Assembly: GCA_023382455.1 (NCBI GenBank)
Contig: JAHDVX010000001.1
Location: 62,001 to 126,000, forward strand
Source of the DNA: Flavobacteriales bacterium
GTDB taxonomy: Bacteria > Bacteroidota > Bacteroidia > Flavobacteriales_F > PHOS-HE28
Direction of reading: 5' to 3'
Length of the DNA stretch: 64,000 nt
Below the pieces are notes generated by a model that was given only the letters and a program-made list of their open reading frames with translations, did not search any database and was not told the origin of the DNA. Numbering within the stretch: the first letter of the stretch is position 1; each line of letters begins with the position of its first letter. Below, piece after piece: positions 45,353-63,801 of the stretch. Both the position numbers and the translations under genes were made by a program.

Positions 45353-45468
45353 CCGGAGCGATACTGGAAGGAAATGGGAGCTTGGCCCCTGCTGCCGGGT
45401 CCTCCGGAAAGATCTCCCAAATGCTCCCCGGATCTCGTGCGATCTTGCAGCCGCAAATCCTTCATTCC

Positions 45469-46731
45469 ATGCAGATGCGCCGCCTCCTTCCCTGCCTTGC
45501 CGTACTGACACTGGCCACACCATCATTGGCCCAGGAAGTGAAGCCCGAGGACGACCGTACCTTGAACGCATTGGTGCTGGCCCGCTGTCCCGGGGCCGAT
45601 ATCGTGCGGGTGGAACGCTCCGGATCGGGACTGGTGGAGGTGGAATACCTGTGCAACGGCGAGCTGACCGAGGCGGGGATCAGTGAAGGGAAGGTGCTGT
45701 ATGAGCAGCGGGAGGCCAAGCCCGGCGAGCAGGTGATGGACCGCATCCGCAAGAAACTGGCGAAGGACCACCCGGGCTGGCTGCTGGACGAGATCGAACT
45801 GGTGACCACGCCCGACACGGCCTTCCTGAAGGCGGAAGTGATGCGCGAAGGCGTGGAGCTGAACGTGTTCTTCACCACGGACGGCAAGAAATACAAGCCC
45901 GTGGCGCTGCTGGCCTCGGACCAGTGGACCCTGAACGACCTGCGCACCGTGGAACTGCCGCAATTGGGCTACGACCTGCTCGAGCCCGACAGCACCTATG
46001 AACTTCCCGACCTGCTTCGCGAGGTAAGCGGCATCGCCTTGGCCGATGACCATACCGTGTTGTGCGTGCAGGATGAACTGGCGGCGGTGTTCACGTACGA
46101 CCTTCGGGAGGAGCGCATCACCCGGGTGATGCGCTTCGATGATATCGGCGACTTCGAGGACCTGCTGCTCAACGGGGACCGGATCCTGGTGCTGCGCAGC
46201 GATGGCCGCGTATACGAGCTGGACCGCCGAAGCGGCAAGCTGCGGAAGGAATGGAACGCCGACCTGCGATCGCTCAACTACGAAGGCATCTTCCAGGACC
46301 CGCAAACCGGGGCGGTCTGCGTGGTGGCCAAGGAGCCCCCCGTGGCCGGCCATGTGGACGAACGCCCTGTGGAGCAAGTGGATGCCGAAGGACACAGCAG
46401 CCTCTGGCGGAACCTGGGCGCCACGGAAGTGGAGCAGGCCTTCGCACGCGAGTTGCCGGGCCTGGCGCGCCGCAAGGTGTTGTTCCAGCCTTCCGCAGCC
46501 GCCATCCATCCCATTACGGGCGCCTTGTTCGTGCTCTCCGCCAGCGACCGGCTGCTGGTAACCTACCAGGCCGGCACGTGCACCGTGACCCCCCTTCCGG
46601 CAGAGGTCTTCTTCAAGCCCGAGGGTCTGGCCTTCTTCCCCAACGGCGACCTGTTGATCAGCAGCGAGGGCGACAAGAAGGGCGTGGCCAAGGGAAGCAT
46701 GATGCGCTTCGGCTTCAGGCCGGCCAAGTGA
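45469..46731 (+). CDS. Secreted PepSY-like plus SdiA-regulated-domain protein
   Basis: 420 residues from the ATG at 45469 (the one at 45475 is also possible). A signal peptide (MRRLLPCLAVLTLATPSLAQ) is followed by an N-terminal PepSY-like region (about 25-165: VEVEYLCNGELTEAG, RIRKKLAKDHPGWLLDEIEL). The SdiA-regulated beta-propeller domain comes next (YELPDLLREVSGIALADDH, VMRFDDIGDFEDLLLNGDR, FFKPEGLAFFPNGDLLIS). It is predicted periplasmic or outer-membrane associated. It is divergent from the response regulator gene and shares the PepSY theme with the gene on the other side of the two-component system. Confidence 0.85.
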   Translation: MQMRRLLPCLAVLTLATPSLAQEVKPEDDRTLNALVLARCPGADIVRVERSGSGLVEVEYLCNGELTEAGISEGKVLYEQREAKPGEQVMDRIRKKLAKDHPGWLLDEIELVTTPDTAFLKAEVMREGVELNVFFTTDGKKYKPVALLASDQWTLNDLRTVELPQLGYDLLEPDSTYELPDLLREVSGIALADDHTVLCVQDELAAVFTYDLREERITRVMRFDDIGDFEDLLLNGDRILVLRSDGRVYELDRRSGKLRKEWNADLRSLNYEGIFQDPQTGAVCVVAKEPPVAGHVDERPVEQVDAEGHSSLWRNLGATEVEQAFARELPGLARRKVLFQPSAAAIHPITGALFVLSASDRLLVTYQAGTCTVTPLPAEVFFKPEGLAFFPNGDLLISSEGDKKGVAKGSMMRFGFRPAK

Positions 46732-54668: not shown

Positions 54669-55382
54669 TCACGTTCTACGACGACTGACCCGTGGCTTGT
54701 CCTTACGGTTGCGCGATTCTATGTCTACTGACCATTCACTCTTTCTTTCACGAGACTCCCGTACCTTGGGAACACGTTTTCGCTTCTGCTGCTCAATGGG
54801 CTCTTCATCTGGTATCCTTGTTTGAATCCCAGCGACCTTCATTGTCCTAAATGCCTTTTGGATGGCTTCTCTCGTATCCTTCGGAATCGTTCCGTAACGC
54901 CCTAAAAGTTCCAACGCTAGTTCCTCGCCTTGCACGCGGGTCATCTTGCCGTTCCTCACCCTCTTGAACAATCCTTCAACTTGACCAACTGCACCGGCAT
55001 CAGCATGCACACTTAACACCTTTCCAGCTTGCTTGGCCTTTCGCACAAAGGCGATCGAAAGAACCTTCTTGGCCACATGCTTGCCGTCATTTGCCAGCTC
55101 CTTCACGCCATTCTTAAAGTCCGGGTATTGCGCAACAGCCTCATAAACAATCTTGGCAGTTGCTAGGACAAGAGCTACCCCGATAGCAGATCCCTCTTCA
55201 ACATGGACTTTTAGCCCAACATCCCGATCCTCGTAGCGCTCGTATGCTGAAACGCGTAATGCGTAGAAAGCCTCCCAAGCAATCTTCTCCAATTCATCAG
55301 GATCCGAGAAGTTCCCCTCAATGTGGAACTCCGCTCGTGAGAGTTCCACATCGTCCGTGTCCTTGGGCGCTTTACTTGCCAT
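54669..55382 (-). CDS. Unknown island protein with basic C-terminal tail
   Basis: 237 residues from the ATG at 55382 (MASKAPKDTDDVELSRAEFHI). Lower GC than the chromosome. The central pattern VHVEEGSAIGVALVLATAK, followed by YPDFKNGVKELANDGKHV, resembles a recurrent arrangement (GS, hydrophobic helix, Y-x-x-F-x-x-G, helix) I associate with accessory proteins of unknown role. The hydrophobic stretch at about 66-82 could be a weak membrane helix. The last 45 residues are strongly basic (KRKRVPKVRESRERK). It lies 32 bases after the next gene in the same direction and is probably co-transcribed. No function can be assigned. Confidence 0.65.
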   Translation of the reverse strand: MASKAPKDTDDVELSRAEFHIEGNFSDPDELEKIAWEAFYALRVSAYERYEDRDVGLKVHVEEGSAIGVALVLATAKIVYEAVAQYPDFKNGVKELANDGKHVAKKVLSIAFVRKAKQAGKVLSVHADAGAVGQVEGLFKRVRNGKMTRVQGEELALELLGRYGTIPKDTREAIQKAFRTMKVAGIQTRIPDEEPIEQQKRKRVPKVRESRERKSEWSVDIESRNRKDKPRVSRRRT

Positions 55383-55414
55383 AGTGAAAATGGTGGTCAC
55401 ATGGCCCGTTCGTC

Positions 55415-56179
55415 CTAACGAGCACTTGGCCCAACCCTAGGGCGGTGCTGCTGGTTGGGGTTCAGCTGAATCGCTCCGGCCCGGCTTATGGTCTTGAGCA
55501 ACAGTCGAATCTCATCCAAAGTTGGTTCGAGAGCATCCATGATTTCCTTCCTCTCCAACTGCGCGTAGGTGACCTCTGTTTTCTTGAAGGCATCAATAGC
55601 AATGCAGTATTGGGCGTTGATCGTATGGGTCGTGGAAAAATGAGCTTCCAGATACCGATACATAAGGCTCGTGAACATCCCTAGTTCTGCAGGACTAAAT
55701 CCGTCCTTCTTGGCAACGAACCAAGTGCATCCTACTTGGTCAAAACCATCTTTGTTGAACGTGAAAATGTGGCTTATGTCCACTTGGACATTGAACCCCT
55801 TGACAACGAACAGGACTTTCCGCTTTGGGGTCCTCGGGAATTCAAGATCCTTGACGGGCCTCAACCTTTTGAGGTCAGAACTCGTGTACTGAGCTAGGAT
55901 GTCAATATTCCTCGTGTACGTGTCCTTGGTCTGCTTGCGAATTGACTTTGATCGCTTATCACACAACTCGGATATTTTATCCGTTGCGTAGCGTATGTCA
56001 TTCTCCCTGAAACTCTTGTTCAAGGCCGAGATGCTGGTGATCCAATAATCTCCACCGCCAGACTCTGCTCCCGGTTCTTTCGGCTTGGGGGGGCGATTAA
56101 GGCGGTTCACAAAACCTAGCTTGCCTTTATCTCCTTTGCTGCGGAATTCAGCAATCGTCTTGATGGTCAGTTTCTGCAT
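55415..56179 (-). CDS. Unknown island protein
   Basis: 254 residues starting MQKLTIKTIAEFRSKGDKG. Lower GC and codon use unlike the chromosome suggest transfer. Features: a basic helical N-terminal part with YWITSISALNKSFRE and ISELCDKRSKSIRKQTKDTY, then a beta-rich middle (KVLFVVKGFNVQVDISHIFTF, GCTWFVAKKDGF) and a helical tail. No signal peptide, membrane helix or known catalytic motif is visible. It is encoded just upstream of the basic-tail protein in the same direction, forming a two-gene unit. No family was recognised. Confidence 0.65.
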   Translation of the reverse strand: MQKLTIKTIAEFRSKGDKGKLGFVNRLNRPPKPKEPGAESGGGDYWITSISALNKSFRENDIRYATDKISELCDKRSKSIRKQTKDTYTRNIDILAQYTSSDLKRLRPVKDLEFPRTPKRKVLFVVKGFNVQVDISHIFTFNKDGFDQVGCTWFVAKKDGFSPAELGMFTSLMYRYLEAHFSTTHTINAQYCIAIDAFKKTEVTYAQLERKEIMDALEPTLDEIRLLLKTISRAGAIQLNPNQQHRPRVGPSAR

Positions 56180-56650: not shown

Positions 56651-57163
56651 ATGGCCGCTTGGATAGATCATTTGAATGAGAACTCGGCCGCCATCCAAGC
56701 GGTCTCCACGATCGTTCTTGTGCTCATCACAGGGTGGTACGCCAAGCTCACGAGGGACTTGTCCCGTACAGCCCACGACCAGCTCGAAGAGTCGAAGGCC
56801 ACCCGCAAGGCACAGGAGAAGGAGCGGTCGGCCGTGCTCAAAGAACTGCTGCTCCGCATGAACGAGCGTCTGGCTCAAATCCCCGAGGATGACTATCCCA
56901 AGCAGCAGGACATTCAGAGCCTGTTGGATGAATACGACAAGTACAGACTGGATCTGACACGCAGCTCCAGTCTTGAGCAGCAGGAGCTTGGAGGTCACAT
57001 CGACAAGATCCTGCATGCACTATCCTCGCTCAAGGAAGTAACAAGAGGGGTGAGGGCATTGACCGGCGACCAAGCCGTGGCATCCGCGCGGCTGCCTGTT
57101 CTAACGCTCAAAGAGTGTTGTGCCGATGCCCTGAAGTACCTTTCGCAGGATCAACCCAAATGA
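56651..57163 (+). CDS. Membrane-anchored coiled-coil protein coupled to the Beta-family gene
   Basis: 170 residues. One N-terminal transmembrane helix (IQAVSTIVLVLITGWYA, about residues 14-31) is followed by a long charged, probably coiled-coil helix (RTAHDQLEESKATRKAQEKE, about 38-75). A helical C-terminal domain comes after it. The topology predicts a small outside part and a cytosolic body. No family was recognised beyond the general type seen in accessory islands. Its TGA overlaps the ATG of the Beta-family gene (ATGA at 57160-57163), so the two proteins are made together and may form a membrane-tethered complex. Confidence 0.75.
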   Translation: MAAWIDHLNENSAAIQAVSTIVLVLITGWYAKLTRDLSRTAHDQLEESKATRKAQEKERSAVLKELLLRMNERLAQIPEDDYPKQQDIQSLLDEYDKYRLDLTRSSSLEQQELGGHIDKILHALSSLKEVTRGVRALTGDQAVASARLPVLTLKECCADALKYLSQDQPK

Positions 57164-58254
57164 TGGAAAGATTCGACCACCGGCACTACGTCCCCATGCT
57201 TCGTGCGCGGCAGGGAGAGTTCGGCGCGCTCTCTGAGATAGGCGTTCCGAGCAAGTCCAAGATGACGCCCTTGTTCGACGTTCCCGCAGCGCCGTGGGAT
57301 TTCGACAAAGACGCCCCATCAAAGCCCATACATGAGTACCTGCCTGCGTTCCCGGAGAAGATCCGGAAAAGCTGGGGGCATGGATTCTGTTTCGTCGACC
57401 TCTTGGACTTGGAGGGGGAATTCATGCCTGATGGTGGTCATCCGGTGTCCTCCTTCTTCAAGCAGGCGACTGATGAGGATATGAATGCCATCCCCGTCGT
57501 GGGCCTTCAACGAAGCCAGCAATACCTTATCGCTGTTCGAGATACAGTGCGGCGGGACGGCCGCGGCGTTTGTGTCCGGGTTGATAATAGTGACTTGGAG
57601 AACCCCGGCTCGTTGAGCAATGGGTTGAACGACTTGTTGACGTTTCTTGGCCTCAAGCGGGAGCAATGCGACTTGATCTTCGACTTGAAGACGATAACTC
57701 CTGAGACAAGAGGCCCCATCGTATTTGCCATGAATACGATCCTCGGGCTGCTGCCCGGAATCGAGAACTGGCGTACACTGACCTTAGCCGGTTCATCATT
57801 CCCGGACAGCATGATGGACGTTCCTGCGCACACGTTCCATCAACTTCCCCGCGTTGAATGGGAGATCTGGTCCGCTATCACCACCCGTGGTGGCGTACCC
57901 CGGCTCCCAACGTATGGCGATTACGGCGTAGCCAGTCCCAGTTCCATGGGTGAAGGGGTCGATCCGCGCATGATGCGGATGAGCGCCAATCTGAGGTATA
58001 CGCTTGAGCCTACTTGGCTTCTACTGAAAGGGCGCAATGTCCGGGACCATGGCTACGAGCAGTTCCGGGAGCTGTGTAAGCTGCTGGTGGGAAGCGAGTA
58101 CTTCCGAGGTCAAGATTTCAGCTGGGGCGACAACTTCATCTTTCAAGCATCCCAAGAACTGGCCGGACCGGGGAATGCCTCTACATGGCGCAAAGTGGGG
58201 ACATCTCACCACTTGGCTCTTGTGAAGCATCAGATCGCCAATTTGTTCGGCTGA
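57160..58254 (+). CDS. Beta family protein (PF14350-like)
   Basis: 364 residues from the ATG at 57160, which overlaps the upstream stop. The N-terminus HYVPMLRARQGEFGALSEIG with KSKMTPLFDVP is the typical opening of the T4-like Beta family. Later features include GVCVRVDNSDLENPG, CDLIFDLKTITPETRG, WRTLTLAGSSFPDSM and LPRVEWEIWSAITTR, consistent with a TIM-barrel-like fold. The biochemical function of the family is unknown; members occur in phages and bacterial accessory islands, and relatives (sce7725 family) are found next to sce7726 genes. Here an sce7726 gene lies convergent, with 3' ends overlapping by 74 bases. Confidence 0.85.
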   Translation: MMERFDHRHYVPMLRARQGEFGALSEIGVPSKSKMTPLFDVPAAPWDFDKDAPSKPIHEYLPAFPEKIRKSWGHGFCFVDLLDLEGEFMPDGGHPVSSFFKQATDEDMNAIPVVGLQRSQQYLIAVRDTVRRDGRGVCVRVDNSDLENPGSLSNGLNDLLTFLGLKREQCDLIFDLKTITPETRGPIVFAMNTILGLLPGIENWRTLTLAGSSFPDSMMDVPAHTFHQLPRVEWEIWSAITTRGGVPRLPTYGDYGVASPSSMGEGVDPRMMRMSANLRYTLEPTWLLLKGRNVRDHGYEQFRELCKLLVGSEYFRGQDFSWGDNFIFQASQELAGPGNASTWRKVGTSHHLALVKHQIANLFG

Positions 58255-58795
58255 CCAACTTTTGGCGAACAAGGTCCCGCAGGGAGTCCAACGGGGTCTC
58301 TTCTGCCAACACACGCCATAGCACCCTGCGGGGCTTTGAACGAAGCCCTTTAGCAAGTCCTTGTTCACTCAGCAAGTCCAAGACCTCTTCCTTCCATAGA
58401 AGCTGGACCAAACAATCAGCTTTTACATCCGGATTGCGCTTGGGCTTCCTCCGCTCTTTCAGCCGTGGCTCACCGTTCTTGCGCGGTTGAGCTTCCATGA
58501 TACCCCACCATTCCGGCACTTGGGCTTGCACAGCCTCAAGGTATGAGGGGCCGATCACGATCGTGACCGTATCGAACACCTTGGAATACGTTTCCTGCTG
58601 TTGTGGTAAACGACACAGCGTATCGCGCTCGCTCTTGATCTCGAAACCGTGCAGCGCACCGTTCACGACCGCCATATCGATACGGACCGTTCCTTGGCAC
58701 ACCCCCAACTCATCCACGATCAACGTGTCATGCTGCCCTCCGTAACGATCGGACAGGCGCTGCCTCAACACCTTTCTGATGTCTAGGTCCCGCAT
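58181..58795 (-). CDS. sce7726 family protein, putative PD-(D/E)XK-like nuclease
   Basis: 204 residues starting MRDLDIRKVLRQRLSDRYG. The segment IVDELGVCQGTVRIDMAVV, then HGFEIKSERDTL, is diagnostic of the sce7726 family. It also carries the arrangement E29, D40, E52-x-K54 that fits a PD-(D/E)XK nuclease active site. The C-terminal half is basic (KERRKPKRNPDVK), compatible with nucleic-acid binding. Nuclease activity is inference; the family is uncharacterised. It overlaps the 3' end of the Beta-family gene on the other strand by 74 bases. An 18-bp palindrome lies about 87 bases upstream of its start. Confidence 0.85.
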   Translation of the reverse strand: MRDLDIRKVLRQRLSDRYGGQHDTLIVDELGVCQGTVRIDMAVVNGALHGFEIKSERDTLCRLPQQQETYSKVFDTVTIVIGPSYLEAVQAQVPEWWGIMEAQPRKNGEPRLKERRKPKRNPDVKADCLVQLLWKEEVLDLLSEQGLAKGLRSKPRRVLWRVLAEETPLDSLRDLVRQKLVSRTNWRSDASQEPSGEMSPLCAM

Positions 58796-58881
58796 CGTTC
58801 AAATCCTTACGACCAAAGGAAGGTTGCGCATCTTCTTGTACACCAAGATCTTATCGTCCTATTCCCAACACTCGACTGTGT

Positions 58882-58899
58882 GTTACTCGTACGAGTAAC
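58882..58899. promoter_or_regulatory. 18-bp perfect palindrome, candidate operator
   Basis: GTTACTCGTACGAGTAAC is fully self-complementary with no spacer. It lies between the sce7726 gene (start 58795, reading away) and the end of the XRE regulator gene (58959), the geometry of an operator upstream of sce7726. Dimeric HTH proteins typically bind such sites. The XRE protein encoded next door is the obvious candidate; this is inference. Confidence 0.6.
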
Positions 58900-58958: not shown

Positions 58959-59342
58959 TCACCCCAACTTCTTCTCCAACAGATCCAGCAGCCGCTGGTT
59001 CATCGCCTCCAAGTTCTTCACTTGCGCTTCGTGTTTGGCATCGTAGCGGTCCATCAGCTTCTCCACGAACTCTTCGGGGACCAGATGCCCGATGTGGCCG
59101 TAGTTCGCATACGCGCCGCCTGAGTTGTTGGACACGTTGAACACGATCGGCTCCGAGTTCAGCAGCTCATCCGGGCTTACTTCCAGGACTTCCGCGATCT
59201 TTTGCAGCCGTTCCACATCCATTTTGGTCTCCCCGCTTTCCAGTCGCTGGTAGGTGCTGGGCGAAATGCCCAACCGCTCGGCCATGTCCTCATGGCGCAG
59301 CTTTTTCTGTTCGCGTAGGAAGCGGATCTTCTGGGTGACCAT
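58959..59342 (-). CDS. XRE-family helix-turn-helix regulator
   Basis: 127 residues from the ATG at 59342 (MVTQKIRFLREQKKLRHEDM). The HTH_3 domain covers about 5-60, with LGISPSTYQRLESGETKM as the recognition region. A linker with NVSNNSGGAYANYGHIGHL leads to a C-terminal coiled coil (VKNLEAMNQRLLDLLEKKLG), suggesting dimerisation. It is divergent from the type III methyltransferase gene with 150 bases between starts, like a controller protein of restriction-modification systems. The palindrome at 58882 downstream may be one of its targets. Confidence 0.9.
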   Translation of the reverse strand: MVTQKIRFLREQKKLRHEDMAERLGISPSTYQRLESGETKMDVERLQKIAEVLEVSPDELLNSEPIVFNVSNNSGGAYANYGHIGHLVPEEFVEKLMDRYDAKHEAQVKNLEAMNQRLLDLLEKKLG

Positions 59343-59379
59343 CTGCAAGGGTTTGAAGCTTGGATCGGAGGTTATGGCC

Positions 59380-59491: not shown

Positions 59492-61108
59492 ATGCCCACA
59501 CTCCATTGGATCGGCAAGGACAAGGTTATCAACCACCACCGCGAGGTGCCTTTCAAGGTGCTGGAACACGGCTATGGGTTCAGCGCGGAACAGGGCCGCA
59601 CCAAGGAGGCCACCCGCAGCGGCAACATGGTGGTGCATGGCGACAACCTCGAAGCCCTGAAGGCCCTGCTGCCCCGCTACGAGGGCCGCGTGAAGTGCAT
59701 CTACATCGATCCGCCCTACAACACCGGCAACGAGGGCTGGGTGTACAACGACAACGTGAACGACCCCAAGATCCGCCGCTGGCTGAACCAAGTGGTGGGC
59801 AAAGAGGGTGAAGACCTGAGCCGGCACGACAAGTGGCTCTGCATGATGTACCCCCGCTTGGTGCTGCTCCACAAGCTGCTTCGTGAGGGTGGAATCATCT
59901 TCGTCTCAATCGACGATTCCGAAGTCTTCAACCTCAAATTCCTAATGGATGAAGTCTTCGGGTCCTCAAGTTTCCAGCATCAAATCATCTGGAAGAACAA
60001 GTATGGTCCTGGAGCCTTGACCAAGGGGATTGGAAGCGTCCATGAGTATATCCTGTGCTACTCCAAGGGTCCTCTCTCAAGCATTCAAGCTAACCTGTCG
60101 GAAGAAGAAATCGCGAAATACACGGGACGCGATGACAACTACAACACACGTGGTGGGTACATCACCCAGCCGCTGGCAACCACCAGCAAAGACGATCGCC
60201 CTAATCTGGTATACCCTCTTGTCCATGAAGGGGAAGAGATATGGCCAGACAAGCAATGGATCTGGTCGCGTGAACGGGTTATGGAGGCCTATACAAACGG
60301 GTGGCTCCAGCTGCGAAAAACAAAGGGTAAATGGAGTGTCCGCTTCAAACAGTACCTGAAGGATGAACAAGGTCAACTGCGGAGGGCGAAGCCCATATCC
60401 ATTCTGAACGGCCCTTTCAATCAGGATGGGACCGCTGAACAAGTTGCCATCTTCGGTAAGAAGACCTTCGATAACCCCAAGCCATCAGAGTTGGTGAAGT
60501 ATCTGTGTTCATTCATCCTGAACGACAAAGACGATCGTGACGGGATATACCTCGACTCCTTCGCGGGCAGTGGCACCACGGCCCACGCGGTGCTGAACCT
60601 GAACAAGCAGGACGGCGGCAACCGCAAGTTCATCCTGGTGGAGATGGAGGACTATGCCGAGACCATCACCGCCGAGCGCGTGAAGCGCGTGATGCAGGGC
60701 TTCGGCACAGGAAGCAAAAGCGTAGAGGGCACCGGCGGCGCATTCGACTTCTACACGCTGGGGCCGCGCCTTTTCGATGAGCAGCACAACCTGAACGAAG
60801 CCGTGGGCGTGGAGCGGATCCGGGAGTACGTCTGGTACACGGAAACGCGCTCCGAACTCGGGGACAACACCGGGCACCTTGCACCGGACGACACGTCCTA
60901 CCTGCTGGGCACTCACGACGGCACGGCCTACTACTTCGTGTACGAGCCGGACCGCCGCACCGTGCTGGACCACGACACACTGGCGCTGCTGCGCACCAAG
61001 GCCGAGCACTACGTGATCTACGCCGACAACTGCATCCTGCCGCGATCCTTCCTTGAAGCACACCACATCACGTTCAAGAAGATCCCGAGGGACATCAGCC
61101 GATTTTGA
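59492..61108 (+). CDS. mod: Type III DNA adenine methyltransferase (Mod subunit)
   Basis: 538 residues. An N6-adenine methyltransferase of the beta class: the catalytic DPPYNTG (73-79) precedes the AdoMet-binding FAGSGTT (357-363), with the target-recognition region between. Mod recognises the asymmetric site for both methylation and restriction. Bases about 59885-60540, which encode the target-recognition region, are visibly more AT-rich than both flanks, as expected if this segment was exchanged. The last about 160 residues would contact Res. It starts at the ATG at 59492, divergent from the XRE gene, and res follows 92 bases later. Confidence 0.93.
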   Translation: MPTLHWIGKDKVINHHREVPFKVLEHGYGFSAEQGRTKEATRSGNMVVHGDNLEALKALLPRYEGRVKCIYIDPPYNTGNEGWVYNDNVNDPKIRRWLNQVVGKEGEDLSRHDKWLCMMYPRLVLLHKLLREGGIIFVSIDDSEVFNLKFLMDEVFGSSSFQHQIIWKNKYGPGALTKGIGSVHEYILCYSKGPLSSIQANLSEEEIAKYTGRDDNYNTRGGYITQPLATTSKDDRPNLVYPLVHEGEEIWPDKQWIWSRERVMEAYTNGWLQLRKTKGKWSVRFKQYLKDEQGQLRRAKPISILNGPFNQDGTAEQVAIFGKKTFDNPKPSELVKYLCSFILNDKDDRDGIYLDSFAGSGTTAHAVLNLNKQDGGNRKFILVEMEDYAETITAERVKRVMQGFGTGSKSVEGTGGAFDFYTLGPRLFDEQHNLNEAVGVERIREYVWYTETRSELGDNTGHLAPDDTSYLLGTHDGTAYYFVYEPDRRTVLDHDTLALLRTKAEHYVIYADNCILPRSFLEAHHITFKKIPRDISRF

Positions 61109-61131
61109 ATGCAAAAAAGTGAATAGTGGCA

Positions 61132-61188
61132 GGTGTTTGGTGAATGGGCAGCCGCCCTCCAGTCACCAATCACCTCTCACCAATCACC
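61132..61188. repeat. TCACCAATCACC short repeats between mod and res
   Basis: TCACCAATCACC occurs twice (61162-61173 and 61177-61188), preceded by the partly complementary GGTGTTTGGTGA (61132-61143). The arrangement of tandem short units plus an inverted arm resembles those at 39417 and inside mfd. It fills most of the 92-base mod-res gap and could fold as a hairpin affecting res expression. Confidence 0.65.
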
Positions 61189-61200
61189 AGTCAACCACCC

Positions 61201-63801
61201 ATGGAACTCAAACCCTACCAGCAGCGGGTACTCGACGACCTGGACGCCTACATGCAGCGGCTGATGCGCGTGGGCGACCCGGCGGCCGTGTTCAACGACC
61301 TGTGGGCGGAGAAGGTGGGGGCGTACAATCCGCTCAGCGGCACGGGCATGCGGCCGTACCAGGACAATGTGCCGGGCGCGCCGCACCTGTGCGTGAAGGT
61401 GCCCACCGCTGGCGGCAAGACCTTCATTGCGGTGAACGCCTTGAAGAGCATCTACGACCACGCTTCGCCGGAGCTGCCGCGCGTGGTGCTGTGGCTGGTG
61501 CCGTGGAGCAACCTGCTACAGCAGACGGTGCGCAACCTGGCCGATCCCGCACACCCTTACCGCCAGCGGCTGAACCTGCTCTTCGGCAACCGGGTGGCCG
61601 TGCTGGAGAAAGACGCGCTGCTGCAAGGCACGGGCTTCAACCCGGTGGCCGTGCGCGACCAGCTCACCATCGTGGTGATGAGCTTCGCCAGCCTGCGCGC
61701 CCGCCGCAAGGAGGACCGCAAGGTGTACCAGGAGAACAGCCAGTTGGGCCCATGGGCGGACGTATTCGCCGACGACGCCCACCAACTGAAGGACCATGAG
61801 CCCACGGCCGCGATCAACGTGATCCGCCACCTGCGGCCTGTGGTGGTGGTGGACGAGAGCCACAACGCGGAGAGCGAACTGAGCGTGAAGATGCTGGCCG
61901 ATCTGAACCCGTCGTTCATTCTGGACCTCACCGCCACCCCGCGCGAGAACAGCAACATCATCAGCCTGGTGCCCGCGCTGGAACTGAAGCGGGAACACAT
62001 GGTGAAGCTGCCGGTGATCGTACACAACCTGCACGACAAAACGGAGGTGGTGCAGAACGCGCTGGACCTGCAACGCAAGCTGGATGCCCTGGCCATCGAA
62101 CAGCACAAGGCGGGCGGGCGCTACATCCGGCCCATCGTGCTCTTCCAGGCCGAGCCGCGCACCCGCGACGACAACACCACCTTCGACAAGCTGAAGCAGC
62201 AACTGCTGAAGCTGCGGATCCCCGAGGAGCGCATCAAGATCAAGACCGCCGACCGCGATGAGCTGAAGGGCATCGACCTGATGGACCCGAAGTGCCCGGT
62301 GCGCTACATCATCACGGTGAACGCGCTGAAGGAAGGCTGGGACTGCCCTTTCGCGTACATCCTCGCCTCGCTGGCCGACCGCAGCAGCGCGGTGGACGTG
62401 GAACAGATCCTCGGGCGCGTGCTGCGCCTGCCTTACGTGCGCGCACACCAGCACGAACTGCTGAACATGAGCTACGTGCTCACCGCCAGCACGAAGTTCC
62501 AGGCCACGCTGGAAGGCATCGTGAAAGGGCTTCAGCAAAGCGGTTTCAGCGAACACGACTACCGCGCCGCGGACCTTTCCAGCACGTCTACGGCCCCTGC
62601 TTCCACTGCGGCCGAACTGGACTTCGATGAGATCGACACCGCGCGGGTGAGCTACGACCCCGAAGGCGGAACGGCCGTGTCGCCGGGCTCGCAGGTGGAA
62701 GCCATCACCGCTGCGGCCGCCGCCGAGAACAAGGCGTTGCAGGACCGGTTGACCGCCGACGGCGACGAGATCCCCGACCCATTGATCACCGAAATGCCCG
62801 GAATCGTGAAAGGCCAACCCATGCGCGAGGAGCATGCCAAGCAAGTGCGCAAATTGAAACTGCCCCAGTTCGTGGTGAAGGTGCCCGGCTCGCTCTTCAC
62901 CGGCAAGGACGAAAGTTGGCAACCGCTCAGCCAGGAATTGCTGCTGCACGGTTTTGACCTGGCCAAGGAGGACACCAAGATCGACTTCGACGCCGTGGAC
63001 CCCGAGCTGGCCAGCATCGACGTGACTGGGCAGACAAGCACGAGCCTGCCGATCGCGATCACACGCATAAGCGGCAACCTGCTGAACGACCCGCAGGTGC
63101 AATACCTGTTGAGCAAGCCGCAGGACAGCCGCATCGAGGACGTGGCCCACGCGCTGATGCGGGCCGTGGGCGGCGTGCCCCCGATCGCGGACCCGCACCT
63201 GGTGGCCTACATCAAGCGCGTGATGGCGGACTGGGACGGCGAGCGGCTGAAGGACGCGATCGTGCAGAAACACAAGTACGCCCGATTGATCCAGCTGAAG
63301 GTGCGGTCCCTCGCCGATGCCCATGCCGAGCGGGAATTCAAGCACCGGGTGCAGGTGGGCACCATCCGCACGGAGCCGCTGTGGGGCTTCAGGAAGGTGC
63401 TGGTGCCCGGTGAATTGGCACCACCGTTGGCCGGTTCACTCTACGAACGCGAAGGGGCCATGGGCGAGTTCGAGTCGAAGGTGGTGCAACAGCTCGGCGG
63501 CCTGCCGAACATCGCGTGGTGGCACCGCAACCTCACGCGCGGCAAGGGCTTCCCGCTGAACGGCTTCAAGTACCGGCACTACCCGGATTTCATCCTCGGC
63601 ACGAAAAGCGGCAAGGTGCTGCTGATCGAGGCCAAAGGCGAACAGCTGATCGGTGAGGACAGTGATGCGAAGGCGCGTCTCGGCCGCGAGTGGCAGCAGC
63701 TCTCCGGCCCGGATTTCCGCTACTTCATGGTCTTCGACAAGCGCAAGGTGGACGGTGCGTACACGCTGGCCGAGGCCAAGGGACTGGTGGGCGGGATGTG
63801 A
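61201..63801 (+). CDS. res: Type III restriction enzyme, Res (helicase-nuclease) subunit
   Basis: 866 residues from the ATG at 61201 (MELKPYQQRVLDDL). SF2 helicase motifs: Walker A PTAGGKT (68-74), DESH (218-221), TATPRENSN after it, and the motif VI region EQILGRVLRLPYVRAHQHEL. The C-terminal PD-(D/E)XK nuclease has PD at 795-796 and EAK at 810-812 (HYPDFILG, LLIEAKGEQ). With Mod it cleaves DNA carrying two unmethylated, inversely oriented sites after ATP-driven movement along DNA. All catalytic motifs are intact, so the system looks functional. Confidence 0.94.
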   Translation: MELKPYQQRVLDDLDAYMQRLMRVGDPAAVFNDLWAEKVGAYNPLSGTGMRPYQDNVPGAPHLCVKVPTAGGKTFIAVNALKSIYDHASPELPRVVLWLVPWSNLLQQTVRNLADPAHPYRQRLNLLFGNRVAVLEKDALLQGTGFNPVAVRDQLTIVVMSFASLRARRKEDRKVYQENSQLGPWADVFADDAHQLKDHEPTAAINVIRHLRPVVVVDESHNAESELSVKMLADLNPSFILDLTATPRENSNIISLVPALELKREHMVKLPVIVHNLHDKTEVVQNALDLQRKLDALAIEQHKAGGRYIRPIVLFQAEPRTRDDNTTFDKLKQQLLKLRIPEERIKIKTADRDELKGIDLMDPKCPVRYIITVNALKEGWDCPFAYILASLADRSSAVDVEQILGRVLRLPYVRAHQHELLNMSYVLTASTKFQATLEGIVKGLQQSGFSEHDYRAADLSSTSTAPASTAAELDFDEIDTARVSYDPEGGTAVSPGSQVEAITAAAAAENKALQDRLTADGDEIPDPLITEMPGIVKGQPMREEHAKQVRKLKLPQFVVKVPGSLFTGKDESWQPLSQELLLHGFDLAKEDTKIDFDAVDPELASIDVTGQTSTSLPIAITRISGNLLNDPQVQYLLSKPQDSRIEDVAHALMRAVGGVPPIADPHLVAYIKRVMADWDGERLKDAIVQKHKYARLIQLKVRSLADAHAEREFKHRVQVGTIRTEPLWGFRKVLVPGELAPPLAGSLYEREGAMGEFESKVVQQLGGLPNIAWWHRNLTRGKGFPLNGFKYRHYPDFILGTKSGKVLLIEAKGEQLIGEDSDAKARLGREWQQLSGPDFRYFMVFDKRKVDGAYTLAEAKGLVGGM

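What the first reader, a model, noticed from the sequence alone, without database searches (positions are those of the whole stretch)
56651..58899. Membrane coiled-coil / Beta protein / sce7726 putative nuclease group with its own operator candidate
A one-helix membrane coiled-coil protein is translationally coupled (ATGA) to a Beta-family protein, and an sce7726-family protein lies convergent. Seen in the sequence: the coupling, the E29/D40/E52-x-K54 arrangement in sce7726, and an 18-bp palindrome upstream of it. Known: the Beta and sce7726/sce7725 families are uncharacterised and occur in accessory islands. Inference: a membrane-tethered sensor plus nuclease could form an anti-phage or plasmid-control system, next to a type III restriction system.
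Basis: partly seen in the sequence, partly recalled or inferred. Interest (0 to 1): 0.7.

Follow-up and report, generated by a model that had tools for sequence, protein, structure and literature searches.

The report
Membrane variant of phage-P4 gop-beta-cII defence
Three bacterial genes here are laid out like a known anti-phage module of the satellite virus P4: two of them (a barrel-shaped protein and a predicted DNA-cutting enzyme) form a gene pair kept in the same tail-to-tail layout across many bacterial phyla, and the third, a membrane protein, sits where other bacteria carry quite different toxin genes.

Summary
A 170-aa protein with one N-terminal membrane helix overlaps (ATGA) a Beta protein (PF14350, E 9.6e-76); an sce7726 protein (NF033832, 177.7 bits) is convergent, with an 18-bp palindrome upstream of it. 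The reading "uncharacterised families" is out of date. P4's own cII is annotated as sce7726 family, P4 beta is PF14350, and P4 gop is a small membrane protein. The window repeats the gop>beta><cII layout of P4, shown by others to block lambda and P1 (PMC9122126). Beta is also component C of PD-lambda-2 (PMC9519451). sce7726 is a high-confidence PD-(D/E)xK fold with invariant E29/D40/E52/K54/Q66; Beta is a TIM barrel. In loci found by sce7726, Beta was adjacent in 152/154 with enough sequence. All 161 pairs are convergent and 157 overlap at the 3' ends. Starting from Beta, 23/27 loci have cII. The gene upstream of Beta varies: HTH-peptidase with HigB (= PD-lambda-2), FRG, PIN-like, gop, membrane proteins, or nothing. 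The window's membrane gene is genus-restricted and not a sequence homologue of gop. Verdict: a lineage-specific variant of a known defence kind. The wider result is that gop-beta-cII, PD-lambda-2 and probably sce7725/7726 share one modular beta-cII core.

The parts
56651..57163 (+). ORF170: small membrane protein, one N-terminal helix (about 13-31) and a helical, possibly coiled-coil cytoplasmic part; proposed effector in the position of P4 gop
   Evidence: no Pfam or PADLOC gop match, no BLASTP similarity to Gop
57160..58254 (+). Beta protein (PF14350; PADLOC PD-Lambda-2_C and beta), predicted TIM barrel; start 57160 or 57163
58181..58795 (-). cII / sce7726 family protein, predicted PD-(D/E)xK nuclease (E29, D40, E52xK54, Q66xxxY70)
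58181..58254 (.). 74-bp antiparallel overlap of the 3' ends of Beta and cII; this overlap is conserved across phyla
58882..58899 (.). 18-bp perfect palindrome GTTACTCGTACGAGTAAC between the XRE gene and cII; operator role unproven
58959..59348 (-). XRE-type regulator, probably of the neighbouring type III RM system and not part of the core
   Evidence: absent beside cII in L017
59492..63801 (+). Type III restriction-modification Mod (59492-61108) and Res (61144-63801): neighbouring defence system

Best explanation
The locus is a chromosomal anti-phage module of the P4 gop-beta-cII kind. Its conserved core is the convergent pair Beta (TIM-barrel regulator/sensor) and cII/sce7726 (PD-(D/E)xK nuclease). 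ORF170, coupled to Beta, is a membrane effector in the slot where P4 has gop and other bacteria have HigB plus an HTH-peptidase, FRG or PIN-like proteins. Proposed working: Beta binds and restrains both the upstream effector and cII. A phage product or ligand changes Beta, releasing the nuclease against nucleic acid and the membrane protein against the cell envelope, so infection aborts. Shown here: families, folds, motifs, gene order, linkage, effector swapping. Shown by others for relatives: gop-beta-cII protects against lambda and P1; gop is toxic without beta; PD-lambda-2C is needed for defence. Inferred: ORF170 toxicity, Beta restraining cII, the trigger, abortive outcome in this host.
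For: P4 carries gop(133 aa)>beta(355 aa)><cII, cII annotated sce7726, and gop-beta-cII is a tested defence system. Window Beta matches PADLOC PD-Lambda-2_C (4e-57) and beta (1.3e-9); sce7726 matches the PADLOC cII model (2.9e-32). Linkage: Beta beside cII in 152/154 assessable loci, 161/161 convergent, 157/161 overlapping; 96/97 overlapping after 70% clustering, 84 of 96 in one phase. From the Beta side 23/27 loci in three phylum samples have cII, all convergent, and the four without it have an HTH/peptidase-type gene upstream. Paired divergence r 0.56 versus null maximum 0.19. Full PD-lambda-2 A-B-C plus cII in L025. cII fold: pLDDT 94, best PDB hit E 2.7e-5, weaker hits include known PD-(D/E)xK nucleases. 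cII is almost never without Beta, while Beta can lack cII, as expected if cII needs Beta.
Against: ORF170 has no sequence similarity to Gop, does not match the PADLOC gop model, and was found only in two genomes of its genus. Most pairs have no coupled upstream gene (70 of 98 tree rows), so an upstream effector is not obligatory. P4 beta is a very long branch. In PD-lambda-2, C is not needed to neutralise the toxin, which argues against Beta as a simple antitoxin. Enrichment of other defence genes around 18 loci was weak against matched controls. No functional data exist for this locus.
Confidence: 0.6

Rival explanations
1. Two-gene system: Beta and cII alone are the functional unit (nuclease plus inhibitor/targeting partner). 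ORF170 is a lineage-specific passenger or regulator that is not required.
For: About 70 of 98 tree rows, E. coli Rac-type prophages (93 of 5426 complete genomes) and Gordonia/Mycolicibacterium phages carry the pair with no gop-like gene.
Against: ORF170 overlaps Beta by ATGA in both genomes and is under purifying selection. Many other loci place a known effector type in the same position.
Confidence: 0.25
2. One reading: ORF170 is a membrane-tethered sensor that signals through Beta to the sce7726 nuclease.
For: Membrane anchoring with a predicted cytoplasmic helical part; translational coupling to Beta.
Against: The equivalent position is occupied by toxins/effectors (Gop, the PD-lambda-2 HigB/HTH-peptidase operon, FRG), and membrane proteins are the exception there.
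Confidence: 0.15
3. Not defence: a plasmid/prophage maintenance (addiction) or superinfection-exclusion module retained without benefit to this host.
For: Often on prophages and plasmids, scattered (2 of 45 same-genus genomes), toxin-antitoxin-like partners.
Against: Two experimentally tested relatives protect against phages. Here it is chromosomal, beside a type III RM system.
Confidence: 0.15
4. The conserved 3' overlap is a by-product: cII's variable tail simply reads through into antisense of Beta's conserved end, with no regulatory role.
For: cII residues after about 190 are unconserved and low-confidence; the overlap length varies from 8 to about 140 bp; P4 has a 27-bp gap instead.
Against: Overlap in 96 of 97 non-redundant loci with one dominant phase; both proteins have conserved residues inside it.
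Confidence: 0.5

Closest known systems
P4 satellite gop-beta-cII defence system (Rousset et al. 2022, PMC9122126)
   Same: Same order and orientation: small membrane protein > Beta (PF14350) convergent with cII (sce7726); similar sizes
   Different: ORF170 has one helix rather than two and no sequence similarity to Gop; Beta 23% and cII 28% identical to P4's; in the window Beta and cII overlap by 74 bp, in P4 a 27-bp gap with a terminator separates them
PD-lambda-2 (Vassallo et al. 2022, PMC9519451)
   Same: Beta is component C (PADLOC PD-Lambda-2_C, E 4e-57)
   Different: No HigB (A) and no Xre-peptidase (B) in the window; the published three-gene system has no cII, although some relatives found here carry A-B-C plus cII
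sce7725/sce7726 pair (NF033831/NF033832)
   Same: sce7726 nuclease family; sce7725 profile aligns end to end with Beta (hhalign probability 82%, E 1e-5)
   Different: sce7725 pairs are co-directional and their sce7726 is about 300 aa; the window pair is convergent and its sce7726 is 204 aa
SPO1766-type fold (PDB 3dnx) and PD-(D/E)xK nucleases NucS, XPF, Bax1, Can2
   Same: Core fold and active-site order of cII
   Different: Low sequence identity (7-19%) and different partners

Membership tests
gop-beta-cII system | Beta homologue | tested here: met
   PF14350 E 9.6e-76; PADLOC beta 1.3e-9
gop-beta-cII system | cII homologue | tested here: met
   PADLOC cII model 2.9e-32; tblastn to P4 cII 2e-13
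gop-beta-cII system | gop homologue by sequence | tested here: not met
   No BLASTP alignment; PADLOC gop model does not match ORF170 at E 1, though it matches P4 Gop at 4.8e-70
gop-beta-cII system | Small membrane protein directly upstream of Beta, cII convergent | tested here: met
gop-beta-cII system | First gene toxic without Beta; whole locus protects against phage | not testable with these tools
   needs experiment
PD-lambda-2 | HigB-like A and Xre-peptidase B upstream of C | tested here: not met
   ORF170 is the only gene directly upstream on the strand
PD-lambda-2 | Component C | tested here: met
   PADLOC PD-Lambda-2_C 4e-57
sce7726 family (NF033832) | Score above curated cut-off | tested here: met
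   177.7 bits versus 70
PD-(D/E)xK nuclease superfamily | Acidic residues plus ExK on a helix-three-strand-helix core | tested here: met
   E29, D40, E52, K54, Q66 invariant in 85 sequences; model order H-EEE-H-E and PDB fold hits
PD-(D/E)xK nuclease superfamily | Metal-dependent nucleic-acid cleavage | not testable with these tools
   needs assay
sce7725/sce7726 pair | sce7725 (NF033831) partner | tested here: not met
   The window's Beta has no NCBIfam match at 0.1

The most novel reading that the evidence does not exclude
Beta and cII are the common core of a large modular immune family that unites gop-beta-cII, PD-lambda-2 and sce7725/7726. A TIM-barrel protein senses infection and controls a PD-(D/E)xK nuclease encoded tail-to-tail with it, plus an interchangeable upstream effector, here a previously unseen membrane protein. 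The conserved 3' overlap ties expression of the two genes together.
Probability: 0.4. Interest if true: 0.75.

Novelty: new variant of a known kind. Interest (0 to 1): 0.56.

Why it matters
gop-beta-cII and PD-lambda-2 are listed as separate systems with unknown mechanism. Showing that they share one core, that cII is a predicted nuclease almost always tied to Beta, and that the effector slot is swappable gives one testable model for both. It also gives a function hypothesis for the many 'beta family', 'sce7725' and 'sce7726' proteins now annotated without one. The stand-alone pair in E. coli Rac-type prophages makes it testable with coliphages.

Tried and rejected
ORF170 as a Gop homologue: rejected by sequence. 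Relatives of ORF170 in 395 genomes of the phylum and in IMG/VR: none. XRE gene 58959-59348 as part of the system: not conserved beside cII in L017. Palindrome as operator: unique in the genome but not conserved; undecided. Solved-structure search by sequence for Beta and cII: nothing meaningful. Genome scan with the Beta alignment was not possible, being too diverse, so sce7726 was used and the Beta side was checked through phylum samples. An early reading that G101/G105 lack cII was wrong: an overlap filter had hidden it. Defence-island enrichment of 18 loci against matched control stretches: BREX, IetA and AriAB-type neighbours seen, but only a few hits on both sides, so not counted as evidence. 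Literature on mechanism of sce7726 or sce7725: none found.

Full report
WHAT IS THERE. ORF170 (56651-57163, +) runs into Beta (57160-58254, +) with an ATGA overlap, and sce7726 (58181-58795, -) is convergent with Beta. Beta is PF14350 at 9.6e-76 and sce7726 is NF033832 at 177.7 bits against a cut-off of 70. ORF170 has one hydrophobic helix near residues 13-31. Its coiled-coil character is only marginal by a simple heptad test. ORF170 is a real gene: the one same-genus genome found to carry the set (G409, L017) has a 54% identical copy in the same place with the same overlap, and substitutions are strongly non-synonymous-poor in that frame only. The 18-bp palindrome exists and is unique in the genome, but is not seen in the relative.

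WHAT IT IS. PADLOC models name Beta as PD-Lambda-2_C (4e-57) and beta (1.3e-9), and sce7726 as the cII model (written 'cll') (2.9e-32). Phage satellite P4 has gop (133 aa, membrane) > beta (355 aa) convergent with cII, and the RefSeq record calls cII an sce7726 family protein. [quoted passage not shown] PD-lambda-2, whose third gene is a P4-antitoxin relative, protects against lambda and needs that gene for defence though not for neutralising the toxin (PMC9519451). So the window is a P4-type module and its families are not uncharacterised.

LINKAGE. An sce7726 alignment was scanned against 84,980 species genomes and IMG/VR; the best 80 loci of each were kept. Beta was adjacent in 76 and 76. 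Six of the eight exceptions are cut off by the end of the sequence (at most 187 bp left after cII), leaving 152 of 154. With nine further loci, 161 of 161 pairs are convergent and 157 overlap at the 3' ends. In 97 sets non-redundant at 70%, 96 overlap, median 56 bp, and 84 of the 96 overlaps have the same phase. These loci were picked by closeness to the query, so the rate may fall in more remote relatives. The Beta side was therefore checked independently. Among 395 genomes of the window's phylum 7 have Beta and all 7 have sce7726 (26 of 395 overall; Fisher 2e-9). With samples of two more phyla, and leaving out two contig-edge fragments, 23 of 27 Beta loci have a convergent cII, counting one Beta gene split by inserted genes (G392). 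The four without it have an HTH/peptidase-type gene directly upstream (the peptidase reading of the shortest of these, in L251, is by eye). Beta and cII distances correlate (r 0.56, null maximum 0.19).

THE UPSTREAM SLOT. The gene directly before Beta changes: HTH-M78 peptidases (the largest class; with a HigB toxin before them in L025 and L031, and in L025 matching PADLOC PD-Lambda-2 A at 2.7e-41 and B at 4.3e-162), FRG-domain proteins (L028, L042, L051), PIN-like proteins by eye (L067, L083, L087), P4 gop, a multi-helix membrane protein (L179), ORF170, or nothing. On a Beta tree the labels need 11 changes. L025 therefore has a complete PD-lambda-2 operon plus cII, joining two systems that are catalogued apart. 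Other sce7726 genes, about 300 aa, are co-directional with sce7725, whose profile aligns with Beta over its full length (hhalign probability 82%, E 1e-5). This suggests, but does not prove, that sce7725 is a Beta relative.

FOLDS. cII: pLDDT 94; the best PDB hit is 3dnx (E 2.7e-5, probability 1.0); weaker hits include Bax1, NucS and XPF nucleases. E29, D40, E52, K54 and Q66 are invariant in 85 sequences and Y70 is at 99%, the classic PD-(D/E)xK order with a QxxxY helix. Beta: pLDDT 96.5; hits are almost all TIM barrels of unrelated function with low TM-scores. Conserved D79, R139, D174 and D253 lie in or at the ends of barrel strands, which suggests a ligand or catalytic pocket (inference).

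HOW IT MOST LIKELY WORKS. cII is almost never found without Beta, whereas in the phylum samples Beta occurs without cII only when another upstream module is present. This is the pattern expected if Beta controls both. The proposal is that Beta restrains cII and the upstream effector and releases them on infection; ORF170, like gop, would act on the membrane. Steps shown: identity, folds, layout, linkage. Steps taken from published relatives: protection, gop toxicity, need for component C. Steps inferred: everything about ORF170's activity, Beta-cII control, the trigger, and abortive outcome.

LIMITS. No function was measured. The membrane gene is restricted to two genomes of one genus. Enrichment of other defence genes near the pair was weak in a small matched test. 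The neighbouring type III RM system and its XRE gene are probably a separate system. Presence of sce7726 in 2 of 45 same-genus genomes shows that the module is accessory.

VERDICT. A new variant of a known kind. The member in the window is of moderate interest. The modular beta-cII core is the more important result, and can be tested directly in E. coli, where a stand-alone pair occurs in 93 of 5,426 complete genomes.

Noticed in passing
window 54669-55400 and 55415-56179 (-): Two adjacent hypothetical ORFs (243 and 254 aa) without Pfam, PADLOC or NCBIfam matches, directly beside the module; possibly another unknown two-gene system.
   Followed up: no
window 58959-59348 (-) with 59492-63801 (+): XRE regulator divergent from a type III Mod/Res pair, matching a PADLOC RM control-protein model (9e-8); looks like an RM control gene.
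   Followed up: partly
L025 6001-9138: Nitrospirae genome with a complete PD-lambda-2 A-B-C operon and a convergent overlapping cII.
   Followed up: yes
L082 500-3327: Melainabacteria cII overlapping tail-to-tail with a 727-aa trypsin-like protein instead of Beta.
   Followed up: no
L189 2524-4932: On Acinetobacter plasmid pNDM-AP_882 an IS30 element abuts a shortened Beta gene, with cII intact beside it.
   Followed up: no
L012-L014 and L022: In G392 the Beta gene is split by inserted genes, with cII kept downstream.
   Followed up: no
L192-L207: A second sce7726 subfamily of about 300 aa is co-directional with sce7725, often followed by a cysteine-rich ORF of about 140 aa.
   Followed up: partly
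window 46114-46133: A second perfect palindrome (20 bp) inside ORF 45382-46731.
   Followed up: no
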